DNA of 10,057 bases, taken from positions 1 to 10,057 of the forward strand of contig JAAEPW010000711.1 of NCBI GenBank assembly GCA_024232355.1, written 5' to 3'. This document shows positions 1,429 through 10,057 of this stretch, in pieces. Each line of letters starts with the position of its first letter. The stretch's first letter is position 1. The translations under genes and the position numbers were made by a program. The notes beneath the pieces are model-generated. The model was not told the DNA's origin and made no database searches. It was given only the letters and a program-made list of their open reading frames with translations. The stretch comes from Chloroflexota bacterium (GTDB taxonomy: Bacteria; Chloroflexota; Anaerolineae; B4-G1).

Positions 1429-4293
1429 CTACCATTCCTTTGTAGATTGGGGGGTTGGTTCATCATCTGACATGATTTGGGAGTGAATATAGTCGAAGTC
1501 GATTGCGACTCCTTTGCTTGTGGTTCCACCAACTCGCCGCCGAGATTGGATGGCAGTTCGGACACGGAGAAGAACTTGCTTGATTCCCTGGTCACGCCAT
1601 AGGGTGTCTTTGAGTAATTGATCGGCGACCACTCTCGGAGCCAGAAATAAACAGTCAGCTTCTTCTCGGCCTGGTTTTTCCTTGTCTGTAAAGCGGTCGA
1701 TCTTTACCCCGCTTCTGGCAAGACACTGTTCGGATTCACCGGTATCGTCGGCACCAGTCTGGATGTCGTCGATTAGCTGGGCCACCGATCGAGCCCCCTT
1801 GCGGGTGCTTGTGGTGGCGTTGAGGATTGACCGTAACAGTTCGATTTCATCCTTATTTTCCTCCCCGTCGCCAACTTCTTCGCCGTCGGTGGTCTTGACA
1901 ATTTCAGCCAGTACAGTGTTGGCCATGTTCATGTCGTGGTGCATTAGAGCGCTCAGGATGGACGATGGGCAAGCGTAGCTGTCGACGATCCGGTCGTCAA
2001 TCTTACGCCCATTCTCGGCTTTGTGGTGCTTCCCACGTAGCTCCAGGGCTAGCTTTCTAGCCCCGAAACCATAGTGAATGGCCGTTGCGAGTAGCTTTTG
2101 GCCTAGGTCGCGTAGCTCGGGGGCCTGCGGCGGGACTAGATTTCCCTCGTCGCCTGGCCGTGCTGGTAGTAGCTCCTGGACGATGAATCGGTTGCGGTCA
2201 GGGGCGCGTTCGAGTAGGACGTTGATACCCGCTAGCCAGCCGATGTGCTGTAGCCGGTACTCTACGCTGGCCTGGTGGGCTGTTCCACGCAGGCTAGAAT
2301 CGCCACGGCTGGAAGCCCGGAGCATGTCGAGGATTTTCTGCTTTTCCTTGGTCGAATCGAACTCGTCGCAGAGGATCACGCGGGATGAGTTGCCGATGTC
2401 TTGGCGGATGCCGGCGGCCGACGACTGGCTAGAAGCCGACGAAAGGCCCCCGAAGATTTCCTTGAGGGTAGCAAACAAAACAGATTTTCCGCTTTTCGAG
2501 GCTCCGATAATGGCCATTTGTGGCCGCCAACCCCAGATAACCTGGACGAAAGTAGCTAGAATGGCACCAGTGATTACCGAAGGGGCCATTTTGTGCTTCC
2601 ACCGCCACTGGGAAAATAGGTCGGTCCCTTGCTTTCCAACGGCACTGGCCCACGTCCTGTCCTTGGCTAGTTCGAGGTAGCGTTTCAGCGTCTCGAAGTC
2701 GTACCACGGCTTACCACCGGCGAAATGGAGCAAAAGCCCGCCGATTCGCGGGTGTTTGATTAGTTCGAGCGTGTCGCCGTCGTAAATGGCTCCTTCCTGG
2801 CTGCCTGTGAGCACGATAGAGCCGTCTTCATCATTGTTGGGCTTTCGACCTGCCCACACGCCCGGACCGAGCATAGAGCGGTCATGGAGCCGCTTCCCGC
2901 CCGCCAGGTAGGCCACGGCTTCACGTACTCCGGTGAGACTGGCCATGCCGGGCACTTCTTCGCGGCCTTGGTGGATGTTTTGCCGAGCTGGCTTGCCCGC
3001 GATTTGGAGCAGATCAGCGTAGGATACGCGGTTGATGTCCCTGATTCTGGAGTTTTTGCGGTTGAACTCACTGTAGACTTCGATCTGGCCGTTTTCCCAT
3101 TCGCCGAGGACGTCGAGCTTGATCATGCCGCAAACGATTTCGTCGGTGTAGGTGGGTTGTTGGGCGGGAGTGGCGTCGCTTGCAGCGTGACTTGTCACGT
3201 GACTTGTCACGTTTTGGGTAGGTTTTGCCGCCTCAATCAACTCCCCCGCCCGGGCTAATTTTAGCAATTCTTCGTAGGTTCCGCCGGCTAGAATCCAGTC
3301 GCGGAGGTCGAATCCGTGTTTTTCGGTGATCTCTCCCGGTAGCTTCACTAGCCTGGTTTCTTTAGCTACGGTAGCTATAGATTCGCCGAACCGCCTAACA
3401 CCAGTCTGTCCGGATTTGTCTAGGTCGCCAACCACAAATGCCTCTGCCAGTCCAGCGAACAGAGCTATCATTTCCGCCCTGGGCGTCTCCATTGCCCCGC
3501 CAGAATTGCTGATGACTAGGTGCGTCTTTTCTAGCTTTTTAGGTATGATCGACTGCAAGGTTAGTAAATCCGTGACACCCTCTACTTTCCAGACAATTTC
3601 GGCCTCTTTAATGTGCTGGAGAGCCCATTTTCCGATCCATCCGGCGGTCGATCCAAAAGTCGTTTTGGACTTCTTCCAGATCGGCGGTTTGTCTTTGCCT
3701 TGGAACACCGGAAGCGTCTTTCCGTTGCGTGGCAAGAGTGCCTGGCCGACTGGATCAGCGTCGAGGAAATGGGGGCCGTAGACCGGGAAGCTGAAGACTT
3801 TGTGATTTGCCTTTCCCTTCGGCACGCCGCCCATCGTGGCACCGGCCATTAGTATTGATTCCGGCGTTATTCCCTTCTTATGGGTATCGCAATAGGTTTT
3901 GGCAAGATCGTCATTCCATTTTTGGGGAGCGACCTGATCGTTCGGGTCATTCTTCGGAGCGTCGGGGAGTTTGATGCCGGCTTGCTTGGCGAAGTATCGG
4001 ACGGCCTCCATGCGGTCGCCAAGCTCCGGCCGGGCCATGGCCATAAAGTCGAAGAATGAGAGATTCCGGCCTTTGTCCGAGAACTCGTGATACCGACCTT
4101 TGGTAGGGTGTTCGCCGATATTCACGCCGGCAGATGGATTCTTATCTTTCTGCCAAAAGGCCCGGCACGTCACCCAGCCTTTGGCGTCTGGTTCGCTGCC
4201 GGTTATGTCGACGTTGACATTGCGGTATTCGGCGAGGATGTCGAGAGCATCGAGTATTTTCTGTATGGCTTCTGGCCATCCTTGTTTAGCCAT
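1429..4293 (-). CDS. Toprim primase fused to P-loop ATPase (phage replication primase-helicase type)
   Basis: A 954-residue protein that probably makes primers and unwinds or loads on DNA at the phage fork. Residues about 38-86 resemble the CHC2 primase zinc finger (KNPSAGVNI ... GRYHEFSDKGRNLSFFDFMA), but only C43 remains of the expected metal ligands. A Toprim domain follows: catalytic glutamate E238 in KVEGVTDLL and the DxD pair D290/D292 in VVGDLDKSG. A Ser/His/Ala/Thr/Pro-rich linker (about 357-380) leads to the ATPase half, with Walker A GASKSGKS (597-604), Walker B ILCDEF (D643, E644) and a possible arginine-finger segment near 694-702. The last about 75 residues (PRVVADQLLKDTLWRDQGIKQ...) look winged-helix-like. 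The ATG at 4293 follows AAAGGA at good spacing. The ATPase subfamily (DUF927- or D5-like) is uncertain; the primase-ATPase call is solid. Confidence 0.85.
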   Translation of the reverse strand: MAKQGWPEAIQKILDALDILAEYRNVNVDITGSEPDAKGWVTCRAFWQKDKNPSAGVNIGEHPTKGRYHEFSDKGRNLSFFDFMAMARPELGDRMEAVRYFAKQAGIKLPDAPKNDPNDQVAPQKWNDDLAKTYCDTHKKGITPESILMAGATMGGVPKGKANHKVFSFPVYGPHFLDADPVGQALLPRNGKTLPVFQGKDKPPIWKKSKTTFGSTAGWIGKWALQHIKEAEIVWKVEGVTDLLTLQSIIPKKLEKTHLVISNSGGAMETPRAEMIALFAGLAEAFVVGDLDKSGQTGVRRFGESIATVAKETRLVKLPGEITEKHGFDLRDWILAGGTYEELLKLARAGELIEAAKPTQNVTSHVTSHAASDATPAQQPTYTDEIVCGMIKLDVLGEWENGQIEVYSEFNRKNSRIRDINRVSYADLLQIAGKPARQNIHQGREEVPGMASLTGVREAVAYLAGGKRLHDRSMLGPGVWAGRKPNNDEDGSIVLTGSQEGAIYDGDTLELIKHPRIGGLLLHFAGGKPWYDFETLKRYLELAKDRTWASAVGKQGTDLFSQWRWKHKMAPSVITGAILATFVQVIWGWRPQMAIIGASKSGKSVLFATLKEIFGGLSSASSQSSAAGIRQDIGNSSRVILCDEFDSTKEKQKILDMLRASSRGDSSLRGTAHQASVEYRLQHIGWLAGINVLLERAPDRNRFIVQELLPARPGDEGNLVPPQAPELRDLGQKLLATAIHYGFGARKLALELRGKHHKAENGRKIDDRIVDSYACPSSILSALMHHDMNMANTVLAEIVKTTDGEEVGDGEENKDEIELLRSILNATTSTRKGARSVAQLIDDIQTGADDTGESEQCLARSGVKIDRFTDKEKPGREEADCLFLAPRVVADQLLKDTLWRDQGIKQVLLRVRTAIQSRRRVGGTTSKGVAIDFDYIHSQIMSDDEPTPQSTKEW
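3187..3210. repeat. Two tandem 12-bp palindromes inside the primase interdomain linker
   Basis: GTGACTTGTCAC occurs twice back to back (3187-3198 and 3199-3210). Each copy has perfect 5-bp arms around a 2-nt centre. On the coding strand they read VTSHVTSH, a low-complexity stretch between the Toprim and ATPase halves of the primase. They may be a simple linker expansion or a protein-binding site lodged where the protein tolerates it. Confidence 0.85.
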
Positions 4294-4620: not shown

Positions 4621-4654
4621 GGTTTTCCTTTTCGTGTTGGAGTTGTCCGGCTTC
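4621..4654 (-). promoter_or_regulatory. Repeated translation leader, copy B
   Basis: On the minus strand this leader runs from the upstream gene's TGA through AGCCGGACAACTCCAACACG to AAAAGGAAAACC and the ATG at 4620. It aligns over its whole length with the leader at 5379-5413, which has AGCCGGGCGACTTTAACACA and then CGAAAGGGAAACC. The only differences are a few substitutions and one length change. Confidence 0.7.
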
Positions 4655-5378
4655 ATTCTGACGTTGGCGTGGTATCCACGGGCAGGAAGTATACGGATGT
4701 TTTGTCGTCCCTGAAGTCGGGTGAACACATGCTCTGCCATGGGCATCGTCCATCAACCCATCGTGTCGCGTAGTAACACCCATTGCATCGAGCCTTATCA
4801 TCCTTGACAGTCTCCAACAGTGTCCCATCCTTCACATAGAATCGCTGGCCGATTGCTGGTTGCTGGGGTTCTGTTGGGAAGGCTTCGACAGCGGCGGGTG
4901 CATCTTTGACCTCGGGTTCTACTGGTACGAAGATTACGCCTTGGCCGCCATTACGTGCTGCTGATCCACATACTGGTCGGTTGTATGTTTTACAGGGGCG
5001 CCCCTTACCTTCATAAAAGCATCCATTACAGATGCATTTCGGAACAACGACTTTAAGCAGTGTGCTGGTTTCACTATCAGTGAACTCCGAACCAAGCGGA
5101 TAGTATGAGCGTTTCGGCAGTTCCGGCTCACTCCCCCGGTCAATCAGTTCTCCGGCTTCATCTTCCAAGTCTGCCGTAGGTGCCTCGCAATCCGGGTCGA
5201 GTATTTGTCGCCGGGCGTCCATCATGCCTCTGGCTACATGATATGCGTGACTTGGAGTGTCGTTGTATGTGCTTCCTGGCTTCCCGGGGAATTGTCCGGT
5301 GCGGATTAACTCAACCGCCAACACGTCTATCAGTAGCATGTTCGGTTCCCTGTATCGGTCGCTTTGGTCTTTACTCAT
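4653..5378 (-). CDS. Protein with two tandem CxxC...C...C domains, function unknown
   Basis: A 241-residue protein; ATG at 5378 after AAAGGG. The N-terminal 95 residues are helical and acidic (IDVLAVELIRTGQFPGKPG, then ARGMMDARRQILDPDCEAP). The C-terminal part holds the same domain twice. Each copy runs G-x2-F...TLL-x-V-V..., then CNGC(F/Y)Y, a third and fourth cysteine, and a closing strand (VIFVPV, VYFLPV). Cysteine spacing is CX2CX8CX7C in copy 1 (about residues 115-136) and CX2CX10CX5C in copy 2 (about 198-219), so the span from second to fourth cysteine is equal. This suggests a duplicated metal-binding domain of a kind seen in small phage proteins; DNA or protein binding is a guess. It is preceded by a hairpin-rich leader and followed by the small zinc-finger gene. 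Confidence 0.8.
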   Translation of the reverse strand: MSKDQSDRYREPNMLLIDVLAVELIRTGQFPGKPGSTYNDTPSHAYHVARGMMDARRQILDPDCEAPTADLEDEAGELIDRGSEPELPKRSYYPLGSEFTDSETSTLLKVVVPKCICNGCFYEGKGRPCKTYNRPVCGSAARNGGQGVIFVPVEPEVKDAPAAVEAFPTEPQQPAIGQRFYVKDGTLLETVKDDKARCNGCYYATRWVDGRCPWQSMCSPDFRDDKTSVYFLPVDTTPTSE

Positions 5379-5413
5379 GGTTTCCCTTTCGTGTGTTAAA
5401 GTCGCCCGGCTTC
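5379..5413 (-). promoter_or_regulatory. Repeated translation leader, copy A
   Basis: Minus-strand leader of the double-cysteine-domain gene, near-identical to 4621-4654. Even the TGA that opens copy B (the true stop of its upstream gene) is present here as GGGTGAAGCCGG, although no gene ends at this point. This suggests the segment was copied together with a neighbour's stop codon. Confidence 0.7.
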
Positions 5414-5497
5414 ACCCACCGGGCATGAGGAGCCAATCTACTCTACTGGGTTGGTTAGACCAAGAGGCTCCAGGGCATACCCGCTTGCCTTCGGGTA
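5404..5497 (-). other. Three consecutive hairpins in the leader upstream of 5378
   Basis: Between the small ORF stop (5518) and the start at 5378 lie three stems. TACCCG/CGGGTA at 5478-5483 and 5492-5497 has an 8-nt loop. GGAGCC/GGCTCC at 5429-5434 and 5466-5471 encloses TTGGT-TAG-ACCAA at 5451-5463. GCCCGG/CCGGGC at 5404-5409 and 5419-5424 has a 9-nt loop. None is followed by a real T-run, so termination is unlikely. They could be a structured 5' leader that controls translation. No tRNA fold and no known riboswitch was recognised, and I found no convincing promoter in the gap. Confidence 0.5.
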
Positions 5498-5517
5498 CAT
5501 CGGCGTCGATCAGGTGC

Positions 5518-5640
5518 TTAAATATCGCTCAACGACTCATTGCGGACTCGCATAGACGGCCTCCTTTCAGTATTGCGGTATCGCGTGCCGTATTCGACGG
5601 GCGGTATGCGATAGCTTAGTCGGATTGTCCAGAATCTCAT
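5518..5640 (-). CDS. 40-residue hypothetical protein
   Basis: The ATG at 5640 lies 1 nt after the TGA of the upstream gene, with GGAGG 8 nt before it, and the frame runs 40 codons to TAA at 5518. The product begins MRFWTIRLSYRIPPVEYG and is rich in arginine and tyrosine (basic). An internal ATG at 5553 in the same frame also has a perfect AAGGAGG at 6-nt spacing and would give an 11-residue peptide (MRVRNESLSDI). The tight coupling and two strong binding sites favour real translation. The short length and lack of any recognised family keep confidence moderate. Confidence 0.5.
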   Translation of the reverse strand: MRFWTIRLSYRIPPVEYGTRYRNTERRPSMRVRNESLSDI

Positions 5641-5641
5641 G

Positions 5642-5971
5642 TCACTTTCCTCCCTCGCTCCCGCGAGTCATGGCTGTCAGCTTGGCTTTCAGGTCCGCGT
5701 TCTCGGCTTGTAGTTGTTCGATTTGTTCTTCCAGTTCACTTACAGTCACGCCCCGTTCTTCAAACCACGCGAATAGCTCCTTTTGCTCGGCCAGCGATAA
5801 TGGTTCCCTATCGTCGCAACGTGCCAGCAGTACATTCGAGTCGTCGTCAAGCGGGCGGTCGAGGGTGGCTTGCAGTTGCTCGATGGCGTCGAGGCACTCG
5901 ATAACGTGGGATGCGTCTATATAGCCTTGGTTTGCCCACTCTCGCAACTCCGCGATTCGTTCAGCGTCCAT
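5642..5971 (-). CDS. Coiled-coil protein, mosaic paralogue 1
   Basis: A 109-residue acidic protein. N-terminus MDAERIAELREWANQG; a central segment HVIECLDAIEQLQATLD; a C-terminal coiled coil from about residue 77 (VSELEEQIEQLQAENADLKAKLTA). The start, middle and end each match parts of the protein at 6487-6786, with unrelated sequence between, so the two are diverged or recombined paralogues. The ATG at 5971 has AAAGG 8 nt upstream and lies 2 nt after the previous stop. Leucine-zipper-like repeats suggest oligomerisation or partner binding. Small coiled-coil proteins of this type fill phage early regions and have no known function. Confidence 0.75.
   Translation of the reverse strand: MDAERIAELREWANQGYIDASHVIECLDAIEQLQATLDRPLDDDSNVLLARCDDREPLSLAEQKELFAWFEERGVTVSELEEQIEQLQAENADLKAKLTAMTRGSEGGK
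5673..5713. repeat. 41-bp block shared with 6524-6564
   Basis: Identical at 39 of 41 positions to 6524-6564; both encode LQAENADLKAKLTA at the ends of the two coiled-coil paralogues. Flanking sequence diverges at once, so the block was copied or exchanged recently, or is under strong constraint. Confidence 0.9.
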
Positions 5972-5973
5972 TG

Positions 5974-6171
5974 TTATCGCCTTTCTTGTTTATTGCCCAT
6001 CGCTCTCACAGACACTCTCTCTCTTGCTTTCTGCCGTGCCGACTTAACAAGCAATCGGCCACACACGACACACGCCAAGGGGTCCCTCCAGTGGCTGCAA
6101 TTATCGGGGTCGTCAAACTGTTCATCATAAACTCGACTGTCTCCGTTCGTGATGCAGTCATTGCACCTCAT
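5974..6171 (-). CDS. Small zinc-ribbon-like protein
   Basis: A 65-residue protein with two cysteine pairs, CNDC near the N-terminus and CVVCGR at about residues 34-39, plus CSHW between them, arranged as a short zinc ribbon. The C-terminus is strongly basic (KSARQKARERVSVR). Two adjacent ATGs exist (6174 and 6171). The second is 5 nt from GGAGG and is preferred; the first is only 2 nt away. The starts overlap the stop of the DUF4031 gene in ATGATGA, so translation is probably coupled. Nucleic-acid binding is plausible from the cysteines and charge, but this is inference. Confidence 0.65.
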   Translation of the reverse strand: MRCNDCITNGDSRVYDEQFDDPDNCSHWRDPLACVVCGRLLVKSARQKARERVSVRAMGNKQERR

Positions 6172-6455
6172 CATCCCCTCCCGCCGCCTCGGCGGCTTTG
6201 CGCGAGTCGCTTTCGTTGTCGCAGTTTCACCAACTCCTGAACTGTCGTTTCAATTGCTCCGAGACGAACTGCGTCCCGTCGCTTGTTTGGCGTCAAATCG
6301 TAATGGTCGCCACGTCGCCAGTTTGCTCGTAAACCCAGCACTTTGCGAAACGCCTCTAGTTCCGCGTCGCTGTCGGCCATTAGATGGCACGCGGAACGAT
6401 ACTGACGCCCCGGTCCCCACCCCATGCAAGGCCGTTGTTCATCGACGTAAACCAT
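6171..6455 (-). CDS. DUF4031 family protein
   Basis: A 94-residue protein matching the DUF4031 pattern from end to end. It starts MVYVDEQRPCMGWGP, continues with a CHLMADSDAELEAFRKVLGL segment, then HYDLTPNKRRDAVRLGAIE and a helical tail ELVKLRQRKR. The family is widespread in phages and bacteria and has no established biochemical role. I chose the ATG at 6455 because GGAAGGGG precedes it and family members start at this MxVYVD; the frame extends to 6512 without a better site. Its last codons (RRGGGRG) come from a CCGCCTCGGCGG palindrome that recurs in two neighbours in another frame, so the tail is probably an added piece rather than part of the domain. Confidence 0.88.
   Translation of the reverse strand: MVYVDEQRPCMGWGPGRQYRSACHLMADSDAELEAFRKVLGLRANWRRGDHYDLTPNKRRDAVRLGAIETTVQELVKLRQRKRLAQSRRGGGRG
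6184..6202. repeat. GC-rich palindrome CCGCCTCGGCGG, copy 1
   Basis: A 12-bp palindrome (5-bp arms, 2-nt centre) followed by CTTTGCG, 19 bp identical to 7244-7262. It lies at the 3' end of the DUF4031 gene, read as QSRRGGG. The minus strand continues directly into the GGGAGGGG binding site of the next gene. Confidence 0.85.
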
Positions 6456-6486
6456 TTTTCCCCTTCCATCCGGCAGGCAGGAATGC

Positions 6487-6786
6487 CTACCCTCCTTTTT
6501 CCTCCGCGTCAACCGTGTCTATAGCTGTCAGCTTGGCTTTCAGGTCTGCGTTCTCGGCTTGCAGCCGCTCAACCATCGCAATCGCACATTCACCGTGATA
6601 CTTCCAACAATCATCCCAGTGCGTGCGAATACGACTGCCACGCTTATTCATTAGCGTGTCGAGGGTTTCTTGTAGCCGCTCGATTTCGTCAAGCATCTCT
6701 TCTAGGTACGCACGATACGAACTCGCAGGCAAGTCGTGGCATCCACGAATCTCATCTACTAACTCCGTGATTCGTTTATCGTCCAT
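6487..6786 (-). CDS. Coiled-coil protein, mosaic paralogue 2
   Basis: A 99-residue protein beginning MDDKRITELVDEIRG, with AYLEEMLDEIERLQETLD in the middle and MVERLQAENADLKAKLTA near the end, followed by an acidic tail. The two helical segments predict coiled coils. Between them is a stretch unique to this copy (RTHWDDCWKYHGECAIA) with two cysteines and two histidines. It is a paralogue of 5642-5971. I prefer ATG 6786, 7 nt after GGAGG, over the GTG one codon earlier. The start overlaps the previous gene by 11 nt. Function unknown. Confidence 0.75.
   Translation of the reverse strand: MDDKRITELVDEIRGCHDLPASSYRAYLEEMLDEIERLQETLDTLMNKRGSRIRTHWDDCWKYHGECAIAMVERLQAENADLKAKLTAIDTVDAEEKGG
6524..6564. 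repeat. 41-bp block, partner of 5673-5713
   Basis: Second copy of the block encoding LQAENADLKAKLTA, in the gene at 6487-6786. The two substitutions are synonymous C/T changes on the plus strand. Confidence 0.9.
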
Positions 6787-7150
6787 CACTCCCCCTCCCC
6801 GCCTCGGCGGCTAGTGTTTTGCTAATCCATGCTTCCAACCCTGGCGACCTATACTCTCCGTCAGCGTTCTTGGCTAACTCGTCCACAACGGTTCGCAACC
6901 GCTTGTTCTCCTCCACCATCTCCGCACGCTCAGCCAGCAGGCGGGGGAGGGCGTTGCGGGCGGCAACTGCGAGGTTTATATCTTTATCCTCTCCACCCAC
7001 TGGGCATGGTATGTCTTTTGTGTCGATACTACACAGCACCCAGGCGCATGGCCCCCACACTATGCCATGTCCTTCCTTCCACGGTCCCGGCGTTGCCTCC
7101 GCCTCCAGTCGCGTCAACTTGGCAATCTCCGTGATTCGTTCGCTATCCAT
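6776..7150 (-). CDS. Ead/Ea22-like (ATPGPW-type) phage early protein
   Basis: A 124-residue protein. Residues 10-25 (LTRLEAEATPGPWKEG) and the later DINLAVAARNALPRLLAE are the signature pair of the Ead/Ea22-like family found in many phage early regions: the ATPGPW turn and the 'aaRNALPxLL' helix. Between them are two cysteines (CAWVLC) and another (DIPCPVGGE). A coiled coil follows (AERAEMVEENKRLRTVVDELA). The N-terminus MDSERITEI is shared with the coiled-coil paralogues downstream, and RLLAERAEMVE with the gene upstream, so it too is mosaic. ATG at 7150 has AAAGG 7 nt before and overlaps the previous stop by 8 nt. The function of the family is unknown. Confidence 0.78.
   Translation of the reverse strand: MDSERITEIAKLTRLEAEATPGPWKEGHGIVWGPCAWVLCSIDTKDIPCPVGGEDKDINLAVAARNALPRLLAERAEMVEENKRLRTVVDELAKNADGEYRSPGLEAWISKTLAAEAGRGSDGR
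6799..6810. repeat. GC-rich palindrome CCGCCTCGGCGG, copy 2
   Basis: The same 12-bp palindrome at the 3' end of the ATPGPW-type gene, read as LAAEAG. As in copy 1, the minus strand runs straight into the purine-rich binding site (GGGGAGGGGG) of the following gene. Confidence 0.85.
6907..6944. repeat. 38-bp block shared with 7382-7419
   Basis: Identical at 35 of 38 positions to 7382-7419. Both encode RLLAERAEMVE plus the next residues, in the ATPGPW-type protein and the coiled-coil protein upstream, whose other parts are unrelated. Confidence 0.9.
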
Positions 7151-7526
7151 CGCTATCCCTTTCTGCTATATTCTCCATCCCGTGGTTACATTGAACAGGC
7201 GGTGGGAGAGTGCTTTTTCCTAACTTGTGGCCGCTATTCTTCCCCGCCTCGGCGGCTTTGCGTGCCATGATTTCCGCAACGGCCTTGGGAAGATACTCGA
7301 GTCCACATTCCTTTTTCAGCAATGATAACAATGCCTCACGGTCTGCGTTCAGCGTGTCTATCCATTCCTTTTGTTGTTTGATCTTCTCCACCATCTCCGC
7401 ACGCTCGGCAAGCAGGCGGTCAAACAGCTTTAACGCACTGAGAGGCCAAGGGCCAGTAACGTACTTGATGTTATTGCGTATGCTAGCAATCTCTTCGTCG
7501 GTAAGTGGTTGTGGTTGGTCGCTCAT
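7143..7526 (-). CDS. Coiled-coil hypothetical protein
   Basis: A 127-residue protein: N-terminus MSDQPQPLTDEEIASIRNN, then WPLSALKLFDRLLAERAEMVEKIK, which starts a coiled coil to about residue 70, then PKAVAEIMARKAAEAG. The last about 32 residues (KNSGHKLGKSTLPPPVQCNH...) look unrelated to the rest and follow the shared GC-rich palindrome, as if the frame had run on into former spacer DNA. ATG 7526 overlaps the upstream TGA in ATGA, and AAAGGG lies 8 nt before. Its 3' end carries the binding site and start of the next gene. No family recognised. Confidence 0.72.
   Translation of the reverse strand: MSDQPQPLTDEEIASIRNNIKYVTGPWPLSALKLFDRLLAERAEMVEKIKQQKEWIDTLNADREALLSLLKKECGLEYLPKAVAEIMARKAAEAGKNSGHKLGKSTLPPPVQCNHGMENIAERDSDG
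7244..7262. repeat. GC-rich palindrome CCGCCTCGGCGG, copy 3
   Basis: Third copy, in the coiled-coil gene at 7143-7526, read as RKAAEAG. It is 19 bp identical to 6184-6202 but in a different reading frame. Here the gene continues for a further 30-odd codons instead of ending. Confidence 0.85.
7382..7419. repeat. 38-bp block, partner of 6907-6944
   Basis: Second copy of the RLLAERAEMVE-encoding block, in the coiled-coil gene at 7143-7526. Similarity ends soon after it on both sides. Confidence 0.9.
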
Positions 7527-7918
7527 GTCTCGGTCCCTTTCGGTTCGGTCAACTCGATGCGTTCTTCATGCGGAAACGCTCCGTCCAGCACGGTTAGAAT
7601 GTCCGCGTCTTTGGGGAGCATTCGCAATAGGCCGTCGGCAAGGCCCTGCCACAGACCAGTGCGAATGCTGTACTCGATCTTCCAGTTCGGGTGTCGTGCT
7701 TGATGGACGGTAATCAGCAGGTGAATCACTCGATGGCGTGCGGATTCTTCTTCTCGCAACCGCTCTTTCGCCTCCGCTTTGGCGACGTGGTGTATGGTTC
7801 TCCAGTTTTCCGCAATGGTTATAACATACCGGATTGCGTATACGCCCGCGACAATGACAAGCACACCCACCATAGCCACCACTACAATAGCAACACAAAA
7901 GGGCATTGGAATAAACAT
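7523..7918 (-). CDS. Small protein with one N-terminal membrane helix
   Basis: A 131-residue protein. Residues about 6-34 (PFCVAIVVVAMVGVLVIVAG and on to VYAIRYVI) form a long hydrophobic helix, a membrane anchor or signal anchor. Next comes a charged helix (HHVAKAEAKERLREEESARH) and a small domain ending with WKIEYSIRTGLWQGLADG and a loop rich in Asp and Pro. The start is ATG 7918, 6 nt after GAGG; the GTG one codon before is less likely. It sits 65 nt downstream of the ERCC4 nuclease gene and overlaps the next gene by 4 nt. No family recognised; a cytoplasmic domain tethered to the inner membrane is the simplest reading. Confidence 0.7.
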   Translation of the reverse strand: MFIPMPFCVAIVVVAMVGVLVIVAGVYAIRYVITIAENWRTIHHVAKAEAKERLREEESARHRVIHLLITVHQARHPNWKIEYSIRTGLWQGLADGLLRMLPKDADILTVLDGAFPHEERIELTEPKGTET

Positions 7919-7986
7919 CACTCACCTCTGCTTTCTGTCTTGGAAACTTCCGGCAACTCCCATCGGCGTAAAAATGCACTGGGAAC

Positions 7987-8553
7987 TTATTTGGTATTAG
8001 CGGCCTTTTCCCTTTTCCTTTGCCACTCCCAAAACCTCTCCAGCATGTGAAACGTCAATGTCTCACCCATTCGCCGACTACCGGCAAGCACCCAATTCAC
8101 CCGCTCGTATTTCCGTTGCCAGCTAAGGATGGTTCCGTAAACAGAGCGGGGGTTGAGACGGCTTTGCCAGTTGTTTCGGTGTGCGGAAGGATTGCAGATC
8201 ATGGGCCAGGTGGCTTCGATAAGTACAACGCCGTTTTTCATTTCGCTTAGTCGCAAAACTTCTCGGCGGAACCGCTCGCGTTTTGTGTTGTTGCCAAGTG
8301 TCATGTAAAAATCTTCTAAGGACTTCCGCTCGATCGATAGATCATCGTGATAGTCTTCGATCGAATAGTCGCCGGTTTTCAGGTGTAATCGTTTGGTTTT
8401 CACGATTAGAGTGGCGTTTTCGTTTTCGACATATTGTGCGGGGACGTTTGAGAATGGATAGGGAGCCTTCTCTTGCTGATCGATCAGGACCGTGAACGGG
8501 CAGACTCGGATTTTGTCGCTTTCGTTGGTGTTTTTGCTTTTGTCAGTGGTCAT
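7987..8553 (-). CDS. ERCC4-domain nuclease (XPF/MUS81-type fold)
   Basis: A 188-residue single-domain protein. The ERCC4 catalytic motif GDX(n)ERKX3D is complete: G61-D62 in LKTGDYSI, then E75-R76-K77-S78-L79-E80-D81 in IERKSLED. The first strand has the conserved D25 (VLIDQQEK). The motif is followed by helix RFRREVLRLSEMKNGVVLIE, typical of the fold. These enzymes cut flaps, forks or Holliday-like junctions near single-strand/double-strand boundaries. Phage versions usually lack the (HhH)2 domain, as here, and may act with a helicase or partner. The C-terminal 60 residues (SVYGTILSWQRKYERVNWVL ... RFWEWQRKREKAANTK) look helical and may bind DNA. ATG 8553 overlaps the previous stop in TGATG. 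The helicase gene is two genes upstream. Confidence 0.9.
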   Translation of the reverse strand: MTTDKSKNTNESDKIRVCPFTVLIDQQEKAPYPFSNVPAQYVENENATLIVKTKRLHLKTGDYSIEDYHDDLSIERKSLEDFYMTLGNNTKRERFRREVLRLSEMKNGVVLIEATWPMICNPSAHRNNWQSRLNPRSVYGTILSWQRKYERVNWVLAGSRRMGETLTFHMLERFWEWQRKREKAANTK

Positions 8554-8774
8554 CAATTCTGCTCCCCCTCTGAATACCCGATCAACGGCTTGGCTCTAGT
8601 TTCAATGTAAAGAACAATATCAGCTAACCCCACTTCACATACGCGGGCCGGTGCGGCGAACATACCGGCGGGCATGTTTACAGCCAGCCAGGAGCATATT
8701 TCCCGGGCTTCTTTCAAGGTATCAAGTTCCCGCTGGGAGAAGTTGATTTTGTTTGGGGGTATTTTTAGGGGCAT
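8553..8774 (-). CDS. 73-residue hypothetical protein
   Basis: Begins MPLKIPPNKINFSQRELDTL and continues with a helix (KEAREICSWLAVNMPAG) and ARVCEVGLADIVLYIETRAKP. I chose ATG 8774 because AAAGGA lies 4 nt upstream; the frame extends to 8960 but that part only mirrors the helicase in another frame. The gene overlaps the helicase 3' end by 53 nt, and its own stop shares bases with the nuclease ATG, so the three genes are probably translationally coupled. It has no recognised domain. The position between helicase and nuclease suggests a small accessory factor. Confidence 0.65.
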   Translation of the reverse strand: MPLKIPPNKINFSQRELDTLKEAREICSWLAVNMPAGMFAAPARVCEVGLADIVLYIETRAKPLIGYSEGEQN

Positions 8775-10057
8775 GGCTTCCTTTCCATAACTCAATATCT
8801 TCCTGCAAAAAAGTCTTCCGAACTCCCAATCCCGATCTCTTACAAAACTCCCTAGCCACCGCTTTCTGGCCGATAGCAATACAAGCGTCTTCCGCCCGTG
8901 AGAATGCAGTATAAATCCACTCTCGCGTGCAAACCCGCCGGGCCGCCGGTGAACTATCAATCATCGGGATAACGATCTTCCACTGGCTTCCCTGGCTTTT
9001 GTGGGTCGAGACGGCGTAGCCGAGGTCCCAATTGCAGCCGGTGTCAGTGGCGTCGTCACTATCATCATCGTTGCTCTGGCCTTTGGGGATTTTAATTATT
9101 CGCTTCGGACTCTCTAGCTCGGCCACGGTCAACGCCGGCGTAATGTCCAACACCCGCCCCATCTCGCCGTTGGCCACATATATCTTCCCGTCTTCGTTGG
9201 CCAGTGGGTCATTATCATCGGCGGCCGGCAGCCAAGAGTTTTTCAGGCAGATGATCTTGTCGTTAATCCTGAATCGGTTGCCGGTGATTTGCTTTCCGTT
9301 GGGGTTTAGGAGCCCTTGAAGTTCGGCGTTCAATGTCCGGCGGGCCAGTGGGGATTTCTTATTGACCGCACAGAGGACTTGGCAATCCCAGACGGGATCG
9401 TACTCGCGACCGGCGGCAAGTTGCATAAGTATGTTTCGCAACGCAGTTCGCTGGGCATTGGCGTTGGACCGCTCCAGCACAACCAAGTTTTCGCCACCCT
9501 TTATATCCAGCGTTGCCGACGGTGTAAACGTATGCGTATCCCGAATCTCAGCACACACTTTCACAATCCGGCCGCTATTCCGCTGAATCTCAGTCAGCAT
9601 CCCACACGGTAACCCAGCGGCAATCATATCTCGCAGTGGTGCCCCGTGCCCAACAGGGGATAACTGATTCGGATCGCCGACAAATAGAACGTGACACCCA
9701 ACGGCCCGGGCCGATAACAGGGAGGCCATTAGATCGGTGTCAAGCATCGAAGATTCGTCGACGAAAATGTATCGGTATGGTAGTAGATTGCCGCTGTTGT
9801 GGGTGAAGCTCCAGGCACCACCGGGAGCAACTTCGACTTTCAACATCCGGTGGATTGTGGTTGCTTGTAAGTCGATGCCTTCCTTAGCGAGTGATTCGGT
9901 CAGCCGGACTGCTGCCTTGCCGGTGGGGGCACAAGCTGCTATTCTGTCGTCGCCCACTGATTTGATAATCTCGCCGATCATCTGAGCCGTGCAATACGTC
10001 TTGCCGGTTCCCGGACTTCCGGCCAAGATTCCGATTATCCCTTGTGTGGCTTTAGAC
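8722..10057 (-). CDS. RecD/Dda-like superfamily-1B DNA helicase, N-terminus outside the window
   Basis: The frame is open to the window edge, so only the last 444 residues are seen. The visible part starts SKATQGIIGILAGSPGTGKT, with Walker A (GSPGTGKT) at 13-20, motif Ia (APTGKAAVRL), motif II VDESSMLD, motif III GDPNQLSPVG, a Q-rich TEIQRNSG segment, a small inserted beta domain (NGEMGRVLDI), and motifs V/VI in YAVSTHKSQGSQW and WIYTAFSRAED. This is the arrangement of RecD2, TraA and Dda helicases, which move 5'-3' on single-stranded DNA. An acidic loop (SNDDDSDDATDTG) precedes motif V. The tail after motif VI (from about residue 405) is family-specific. Together with the ERCC4 nuclease and primase it defines the replication module. 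A RecD2-like N-terminal domain may lie outside the window. Confidence 0.9.
   Translation of the reverse strand, partial: SKATQGIIGILAGSPGTGKTYCTAQMIGEIIKSVGDDRIAACAPTGKAAVRLTESLAKEGIDLQATTIHRMLKVEVAPGGAWSFTHNSGNLLPYRYIFVDESSMLDTDLMASLLSARAVGCHVLFVGDPNQLSPVGHGAPLRDMIAAGLPCGMLTEIQRNSGRIVKVCAEIRDTHTFTPSATLDIKGGENLVVLERSNANAQRTALRNILMQLAAGREYDPVWDCQVLCAVNKKSPLARRTLNAELQGLLNPNGKQITGNRFRINDKIICLKNSWLPAADDNDPLANEDGKIYVANGEMGRVLDITPALTVAELESPKRIIKIPKGQSNDDDSDDATDTGCNWDLGYAVSTHKSQGSQWKIVIPMIDSSPAARRVCTREWIYTAFSRAEDACIAIGQKAVAREFCKRSGLGVRKTFLQEDIELWKGSHAPKNTPKQNQLLPAGT

What the first reader, a model, noticed from the sequence alone, without database searches (positions are those of the whole stretch)
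5642..7526. Set of early genes built from shuffled sequence cassettes
Four genes share separate blocks in different combinations. A 5' block of about 24 nt (ATGGAx...AACGAATCxCGGAG) starts 5642-5971, 6487-6786 and 6776-7150. A LLAERAEMVE block is shared by 6776-7150 and 7143-7526. A QAENADLKAKLTA block is shared by 5642-5971 and 6487-6786. An LDxIExLQxTLD block is shared by the same two. Regions between the blocks are unrelated, and two blocks are over 90% identical at the DNA level. This looks like active cassette exchange generating new small coiled-coil proteins rather than simple gene duplication.
Basis: partly seen in the sequence, partly recalled or inferred. Interest (0 to 1): 0.72.

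Follow-up and report, generated by a model that had tools for sequence, protein, structure and literature searches.

The report
Phage mini-genes built from swappable blocks
A string of tiny genes from an uncultured bacterial virus is assembled from short re-used DNA blocks with interchangeable middles, and the same blocks turn up in another virus in different combinations, which points to gene-making by piece exchange of a kind so far described for a few gene families.

Summary
Four adjacent minus-strand genes share in-frame DNA blocks (41/44, 38/42, 28/36, 23/26 nt), and the stretches between the blocks are no more alike than shuffles.

Viral contig L012 carries the core of gene 6487-6789 (153 bp, 80%) with different ends, and the same head and junction blocks on other genes; the other 8.3 kb of that contig gave no significant blastn match. 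Among protein relatives, P0044 has P0028's two ends (84/85, 66/67 aa) and a P0055-like middle; P0048 has P0043's head and P0089's tail. Like block sharing occurs in a second viral contig and in Corynebacterium phage PSonyx.

Best explanation: recombination at short conserved blocks swaps cores between small, probably helical phage proteins. Enzyme, timing and protein function are inferred.

Sub-gene mosaicism is known for lambda/Stx Ea22, and block-mediated exchange for tandem T7SS immunity genes: a new variant of a known kind.

The parts
5642..5971 (-). Gene A, 109 aa: head MDAERIAEL, LDAIEQLQATLD block, own core, LQAENADLKAKLTA tail
   Evidence: the protein search found only itself at E<=0.1
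5974..6174 (-). Gene B, 66 aa, between A and C; no block hit to the other genes
   Evidence: no family match better than E=0.09
6171..6455 (-). Gene C, DUF4031 protein (ORF listed to 6512; start taken by me at the ATG at 6455); its 3' end carries the junction repeat in another reading frame
   Evidence: PF13223 E=7e-17; repeat
6487..6789 (-). Gene D, 99-100 aa; core EMLD...ERLQAENA (6547-6699) also found in viral contig L012 with other ends
6776..7150 (-). Gene E, 124 aa; head as in A/D, then LTRLEAEATPGPW, variable core, AARNALPRLLAERAEMVE, AAEAG tail
7143..7526 (-). Gene F, 127 aa; head MSDQPQPLTDEEIA, LLAERAEMVE block, second half shared with P0011, internal AAEAG repeat
5670..5713 (-). QAENADLKAKLTA block, copy in A
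   Evidence: 41/44 nt with 6521-6564
6521..6564 (-). QAENADLKAKLTA block, copy in D; the D-core match to L012 (6547-6699) ends within it
5858..5893 (-). LDxIExLQxTLD block, copy in A
   Evidence: 28/36 nt
6658..6693 (-). LDxIExLQxTLD block, copy in D; the D-core match to L012 begins 6 nt before it
6903..6944 (-). LLAERAEMVE block, copy in E
   Evidence: 38/42 nt
7378..7419 (-). LLAERAEMVE block, copy in F
   Evidence: 38/42 nt
5948..5983 (-). Start block (ribosome-binding site, start codon, first codons), copy at A
   Evidence: family D1
6763..6812 (-). Junction E>D: AAEAG tail of E, GGAGG, start and head of D; matches L012 4977-5026
   Evidence: 52 bp 84.6% (window 6761-6812)
7127..7162 (-). 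Start block, copy at E
   Evidence: family D1
6169..6202 (-). Junction C>B: GCCGCCGAGGCGGCGGGAGGGGATGATG
7242..7262 (-). Junction-like repeat inside F (CGCAAAGCCGCCGAGGCGG), about 100 nt before the end of F

Best explanation
The array is a set of small phage genes whose cores are exchanged by recombination at short conserved blocks. Some blocks lie inside the genes, in predicted helices (LDxIE, LQAENA, NALPRLLAER). Others lie at gene junctions, where one DNA repeat can serve as the tail codons of one gene, the Shine-Dalgarno and start of the next, and in places its first codons. A core that arrives between two such blocks stays in frame and can be translated at once. Partners are probably co-infecting phages or prophages as well as neighbouring paralogues, and the agent is probably general phage or host recombination machinery acting on short homology. 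The products would be small, mostly helical proteins with constant helical ends and a changeable middle, whose most likely role is tuning host or infection processes in the manner of Ea22. Shown: the block sharing, the abrupt edges, and other combinations in independent sequences. Inferred: the recombination agent, the timing and the protein function.
For: Within the window: blocks of 41/44, 38/42, 28/36 and 23/26 nt with cores no more alike than shuffles, and codon identity above synonymous expectation for four of five block types, all but the head. Independent contig: L012 shares D's core (153 bp, 80.4%), the A head (29 bp, 96.6%), the E>D junction plus head (52 bp, 84.6%) and the C>B junction (28 bp, 92.9%); the last three all lie on or beside one L012 gene with another core. 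The other 8.3 kb of that contig gave no blastn match below E=0.25 and tblastx none below E=0.002. D against its L012 counterpart: 43/51 aa in the core, 2-3/20 before it, 4/19 after it. Relatives: P0028/P0044 share 84/85 aa at the front and 66/67 at the end; P0044's middle matches P0055 (51/59 beyond the shared front), P0028's does not (P=0.63). P0048 is P0043 (105/107) then P0089 (92/102), overlapping at the NALPRLL block. P0014/P0018: 85/85, then 25 and 26 aa with no likeness (P=0.94), then a shared AAIAKAE. Of 16 long-segment pairs among 5565, 14 have an internal break and 13 of these have one edge within -5 to +24 residues of that block. Elsewhere: L001 (44/47, 71/81, 34/38 nt in two genes 6 kb apart; codon P 0.007, 0.0004, 0.0007) and PSonyx gp48/gp54 (49/53 and 32/36 nt, codon P 0.00015 and 0.0001). 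Control: lambda (48.5 kb) has no self-match at score >=50.
Against: DNA evidence for exchange with another phage rests on one contig (L012). The protein chimeras come from metagenome contigs whose DNA I do not hold, so assembly chimeras are possible there. Beyond the edges the proteins are often still related: of 13 right flanks tested 9 were above shuffles at P<0.03, and so were 6 of 6 left flanks; the P0028/P0044 middles are weakly alike (P=0.03). P0002/P0007 break away from the NALPRLL block, and some pairs have a second edge elsewhere. The head block is too short to show codon-level copying. Whole A/F, D/F and D/E show weak protein likeness (P 0.006-0.010). Six of 11 distinct phage contigs show no within-locus block sharing at score >=44. 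The -5 to +24 window was chosen after seeing the data.
Confidence: 0.77

Rival explanations
1. Plain duplication followed by very fast divergence of the cores under diversifying selection, with the ends kept by protein function (helix packing, oligomerisation).
For: The RLEAxATPGPW and NALPRLLAE motifs are conserved family-wide (block motif in 93 of 106 proteins, a set found by searching with it). The E model has confident helical ends (pLDDT about 93) around a weak core (59-68). Weak whole-length likeness of A/F, D/F and D/E.
Against: Synonymous positions in four of five block types are conserved beyond codon-usage expectation while cores are at shuffle level. A core (D) is kept while its ends change. 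P0028/P0044 have near-identical ends around middles of different kinship.
Confidence: 0.1
2. Gene conversion homogenises the ends of old paralogues within one genome; no core ever moves.
For: Explains high DNA identity of blocks between neighbours in one genome.
Against: Does not explain D's core with foreign ends in L012, or P0044 and P0048, which combine parts of other listed proteins.
Confidence: 0.1
3. The end blocks are regulatory DNA repeats (ribosome-binding/start elements like SAS) spread for expression; their coding content is incidental and recombination at them is secondary.
For: In five of the six repeat copies printed, GGAGG and an ATG follow the repeat; it is read in two frames (C against E and F). 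PSonyx gp48's copy of the shared tail has GGAGG before the ATGA where gp47 is annotated to start.
Against: Does not explain the internal blocks LDxIE, LQAENA and LLAERAEMVE. One window copy lies inside F, about 100 nt from its end. At PSonyx gp54 the next annotated gene starts 20 nt further on.
Confidence: 0.2
4. Artefact: metagenome assembly joined different genes at conserved stretches.
For: Most relatives come from metagenome contigs, some of them short.
Against: The window and L001 hold several copies of the blocks at different places in one contig, and PSonyx, a deposited phage record with a named bacterial host, has the same pattern.
Confidence: 0.03

Closest known systems
Ead/Ea22 proteins of lambda and Stx phages (PMC10834534; abstract and passages seen)
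   Same: Small early phage proteins with a short N-terminal part, coiled-coil region and exchangeable C-terminal domain; described there as mosaic, with shared blocks and unlike ends.
   Different: Described there as an ea22 gene varying between phages; here four neighbouring genes of one genome share blocks, and E does not match any Pfam model at E<=1.
Tandem T7SS immunity genes esaG/tipC (PMC9484751; abstract and outline seen)
   Same: Tandem small genes recombining through conserved sequence blocks, for tipC at the 5' and 3' ends.
   Different: Bacterial immunity gene paralogues; here the cores show no likeness and a partner lies in another virus.
PeSL promoter-terminator cassettes of T4-like phages (papers not held; known here only through PMC4503421 passages)
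   Same: Short repeated elements said to mediate shuffling of phage genes.
   Different: PeSL stands for promoter early stem loop; here no sigma-70-like promoter and no coding-strand terminator was found in 5400-8000, and the repeats are coding.
Start-associated sequences of cluster K mycobacteriophages (PMC3203893; passages seen)
   Same: Short repeats at translation starts of many different phage genes.
   Different: A 13-bp repeat with proposed role in translation initiation; the passages seen do not present it as an exchange site.
Protein fragment shuffling in phages (PMC10684548; abstract and passages seen)
   Same: Recent sharing of fragments between otherwise unrelated phage proteins.
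   Different: That survey stresses receptor-binding proteins, endolysins and replication proteins; 'Ea22' and 'coiled-coil' have no hit in its main text.

Membership tests
Ead/Ea22-like (PF13935) | Match to the Pfam profile | tested here: not met
   No Pfam family for E at E<=1; PF13935 matched 1 of 58 members of alignment A8 at E<=0.01 (A8 holds E, one protein each of L001 and L002, and 55 of the 109 hits, chosen by me). Weak structural lead only: BFVD rank 7, Gordonia phage Denise Ead/Ea22-like, E=0.08
Ead/Ea22-like (PF13935) | Mosaic N-terminal / coiled-coil / C-terminal build | tested here: met
   mosaic build; for the coiled coil only predicted helices
Ead/Ea22-like (PF13935) | Tetramer; favours lysogeny | not testable with these tools
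   needs purified protein and infection assays
T4-type PeSL cassettes | Promoter and stem-loop at cassette borders | tested here: not met
   0 promoter-like sites; 3 terminator-like sites, all on the + strand, against 2.7 in shuffles (sigma-70 consensus only); the CCGCC/GGCGG inverted repeat is not kept in L012 copies
Cluster K start-associated sequences | Short repeat at several translation starts | tested here: met
   start block at A, D and E and in L012
Cluster K start-associated sequences | The 13-bp GGGATAGGAGCCC consensus | not tested
   window junctions look different by eye; no scan was run
Integron gene cassettes | Integrase and structured attC sites | tested here: not met
   no integrase family among the 15 window ORFs scanned against Pfam; inverted repeat not conserved. 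The rest of the genome is unseen
Diversity-generating retroelement | Reverse transcriptase and template/variable repeat pair | tested here: inconclusive
   no reverse transcriptase family among the 15 window ORFs scanned; the Avd hit to F (E=0.095, 13 of 80 bits) is far below cut-off; only 10 kb seen

The most novel reading that the evidence does not exclude
Phages maintain an integrase-free cassette system: coding repeats that span gene end, ribosome-binding site and gene start, plus internal helix-coding blocks, act as standard ports through which cores are swapped in frame between otherwise unlike viruses and expressed at once, giving a combinatorial supply of new small proteins against changing hosts and defences.
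Probability: 0.22. Interest if true: 0.78.

Novelty: new variant of a known kind. Interest (0 to 1): 0.55.

Why it matters
Many small phage genes have no known origin or function. If their ends are re-used blocks and their middles are exchanged, part of the apparent orphan genes are new combinations of old pieces; whole-protein clustering would then miss their kinship, and block-level comparison would give a way to trace how new phage genes arise. The array makes a testable prediction: crossovers between related phages should fall in the named blocks.

Tried and rejected
Whole-window megablast against phages: no match. Primase and helicase in viral contigs: pattern matches but none confirmed. 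Exact degenerate DNA pattern of the A/D tail in viral contigs: none. Gene A protein search: only itself. Alignment A1 in genome contigs: 159 pattern matches, none confirmed. The single genome-contig hit for the P0002-type tail (L015) lies in a long repeat-rich protein of a bacterial bin; I judge it chance and dropped it. D by tblastn in phages and plasmids: none at E<=1. Array by distant blastn in phages: three Helicobacter phage hits at E=0.05, taken as chance. The idea that the CCGCC/GGCGG inverted repeat is a structured recombination site was dropped because the L012 copies do not keep it. Solved-structure fold search: nothing at E<=0.001. The D model is too weak to use (pLDDT 67, two sequences). 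I did not name the host.

Against my reading: 6 of 11 distinct phage contigs show no within-locus blocks; the self-matches of L011 and L012 were not followed up, and those of L016/L017 lie elsewhere in the locus, not at the tail module. In PSonyx, of 8 self-matches two are gp48/gp54, one lies within gp78 and gp89, one joins two tRNA genes, and the other four lie between genes or around gene starts by their coordinates. In the first 50 kb of MW202476, 18 of 20 self-matches lie in one tandem repeat and 2 between 17.1 and 18.6 kb. P0060/P0067 keep 19/30 identity beyond the break, so their tails are related. Codon-level copying is not shown for the head block.
Full report
WHAT IS THERE. The window is phage-like: primase-type protein (1429-4293, phrog_35358 E=3e-18), ERCC4-type nuclease (7987-8556, phrog_3490 E=8e-18) and a RecD2-like helicase (8722-10056, below the RecD2 cut-off), with a run of small minus-strand genes between them. 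No whole genome is held for it.

CHECK. Ungapped DNA matches in frame: A/D 41/44, 23/26 and 28/36; E/F 38/42 and 17/17; D/E head 14/14; and, in different frames, C/F 19/19 and C/E 19/22. A/D and E/F scores are 23 and 18 s.d. above 200 codon shuffles. In the six A/D and E/F segments outside the blocks, similarity is at the level of shuffles (P from 0.05 to 0.99); whole A/F, D/F and D/E after the head are weakly above it at protein level (P 0.006-0.010). To separate copying from protein constraint I compared codons at identical residues with random synonymous choice at the window's own codon usage: A/D tail 11 of 14 same codons (5.1 expected, P=0.001), E/F block 9 of 12 (P=0.006), E/F AAEAG 5 of 5 (P=0.003), A/D LDxIE 7 of 9 (P=0.011); heads 5 of 6 in each of three pairs (P 0.05-0.11). 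So four of five block types look copied at DNA level; the head is suggestive only.

JUNCTION REPEAT. The fifth block reads, on the coding strand, about ACGCAAAGCCGCCGAGGCGGGAGG, followed closely by a start codon. At E>D, C>B and three places in L012 it lies at the end of one reading frame with GGAGG and ATG after it; in F it lies about 100 nt before the end without them (read from the stretches printed). The AAEAG-type tail is thus at least partly the translation of the next gene's ribosome-binding site. PSonyx gp48 and gp54 share a tail (32/36 nt) with GGAGG shortly before a final ATGA; at gp48 that ATGA is where gp47 is annotated to start, at gp54 the next gene starts 20 nt later. L001 has a 38/46-nt repeat that holds a gene end, GGAGG and an ATG.

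SAME BLOCKS, OTHER COMBINATIONS. L012 (IMG/VR 3300035698_011049, 14.3 kb) was found with the A/D alignment. Window against L012 by blastn, 11 rows at E<=1: 153 bp at 80.4% = D core; 52 bp at 84.6% = E>D junction and D head, at the start of L012's gene 4998-5303; 29 bp at 96.6% = A head on that gene; 28 bp at 92.9% = C>B junction at its end; weaker rows of 83% (35 bp), 83% (30 bp) and 90% (21 bp); four more rows at E>=0.18 are taken as chance. The core of gene 4998-5303 resembles a DnaJ zinc domain (E=8e-5, below cut-off). The remaining 8.3 kb of the contig gave no blastn match under E=0.25. Against its L012 counterpart D has 6/10 identical residues in the head, 2-3/20 next, 43/51 (123/153 nt) from EMLD to QAENA and 4/19 after that. 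The shared core starts 6 nt before the LDxIE block and ends inside the QAENA block, the two blocks that A and D share around different cores.

PROTEIN RELATIVES. A search with E, P0002 and F gave 109 proteins at E<=10, three of them the queries; I read 51 of the hits in full besides P0002. P0002 has F's head (13/14) and E's RLEAEATP and AARNALPRLLAER; P0007 has the same first seven residues and the same tail as P0002 (33/35) on another middle; P0008 and P0009 carry that tail on other fronts; P0011 has F's second half (46/56) on another front. Viral loci L016/L017 and L018 carry a like tail (LPKTADGV...) on yet other fronts. Of 5565 pairs among 106 proteins (window, L001 and PSonyx copies removed first), 16 share at least 30 aa at 78% or more; P0030/P0085 are alike to the end and P0056 ends with its segment. 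Of the other 14, 13 have one edge within -5 to +24 residues of the NALPRLL block; P0002/P0007 do not. Beyond the edge many flanks are still above shuffles (9 of 13 right, 6 of 6 left at P<0.03), as expected of family members or of a second shared block. I reduced these to eight events; if breaks fell evenly, all eight would lie in that window with chance 1.8e-5, but the window was set after seeing the data.

THREE CLEAR CHIMERAS. P0028/P0044: 84/85 at the front, 66/67 at the end, middles of 92 and 119 aa that are at most weakly alike (P=0.03); P0044's middle matches P0055 (67/80 over the shared segment, 51/59 beyond the common front), P0028's does not (P=0.63). P0048: P0043's front (105/107) and P0089's following part (92/102), overlapping at the block; between them P0043 and P0048 differ (P=0.78) before a shared RAVQAP end. 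P0014/P0018: 85/85, then 25 and 26 aa without likeness (P=0.94), then AAIAKAE.

OTHER PHAGES AND CONTROL. In L001/L004 two genes 6 kb apart share 44/47, 71/81 and 34/38 nt with codon P of 0.007, 0.0004 and 0.0007. PSonyx gp48/gp54, near a distant E relative (gp55, tblastn E=0.4), share two blocks. At score >=44, 5 of 11 distinct phage contigs show any self-match (L001/L004, L003, L009, L011, L012) and 6 do not. Lambda has none at score >=50.

STRUCTURE. E, modelled with 56 sequences, has mean pLDDT 79.3: helix 3-18, a weak core (pLDDT 68 and 59 for residues 31-40 and 41-50), a long helix 54-95 and helix 103-118. D is predicted all-helical but at low confidence.

MECHANISM. Recombination at short conserved blocks explains these results best. 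Junction blocks have the extra property that a swapped gene keeps a ribosome-binding site and start. Which enzymes do it is not shown. A role like Ea22's in tuning infection is an inference from build and company, not from a family match: E has no Pfam hit, and 1 of 58 relatives scanned matches PF13935.

KNOWN OR NEW. Ea22 mosaicism (PMC10834534, abstract and passages), exchange through conserved blocks in tandem immunity genes (PMC9484751, abstract), start-associated repeats (PMC3203893, passages), PeSLs (seen only as cited in PMC4503421) and recent fragment sharing in phage proteins (PMC10684548, passages) together cover the principle. I did not see this junction repeat or this array in the listings of searches, which cover open-licence papers only. 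Hence new variant of a known kind.

Noticed in passing
162-701, + strand: A NUMOD4/HNH_3 homing-endonuclease-like ORF (E=8e-4 and 5e-5, both below cut-off), on the opposite strand to the other genes.
   Followed up: no
4653-5378, - strand: 241-aa protein with several Cys-x2-Cys stretches (CNGC, CICNGC), weak phrog_33085 (E=5e-4) and LRV_FeS (E=0.19) hits.
   Followed up: no
1186-1222 and about 1290-1335: An 18-bp tandem repeat (2.1 copies), then triplet (ACT) and GA runs downstream of the primase gene.
   Followed up: no
L016 1888-1956, L017 5283-5351, L018 5842-5943: A recurrent C-terminal module LPKTADGVxIxPG... with a YSTxEAAE-like end on unlike fronts; related tails in P0002, P0007-P0010, P0021 and P0026.
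   Followed up: partly
P0014/P0018 and P0043/P0048: Near-identical fronts, unlike middles and a short shared end (AAIAKAE; RAVQAP...FPEAFAGEVG).
   Followed up: partly
PSonyx record 43893-43986 and 48021-48114 (L014): 67/94-nt match lying within gp78 (annotated HNH endonuclease) and gp89 (annotated DNA-binding protein).
   Followed up: no
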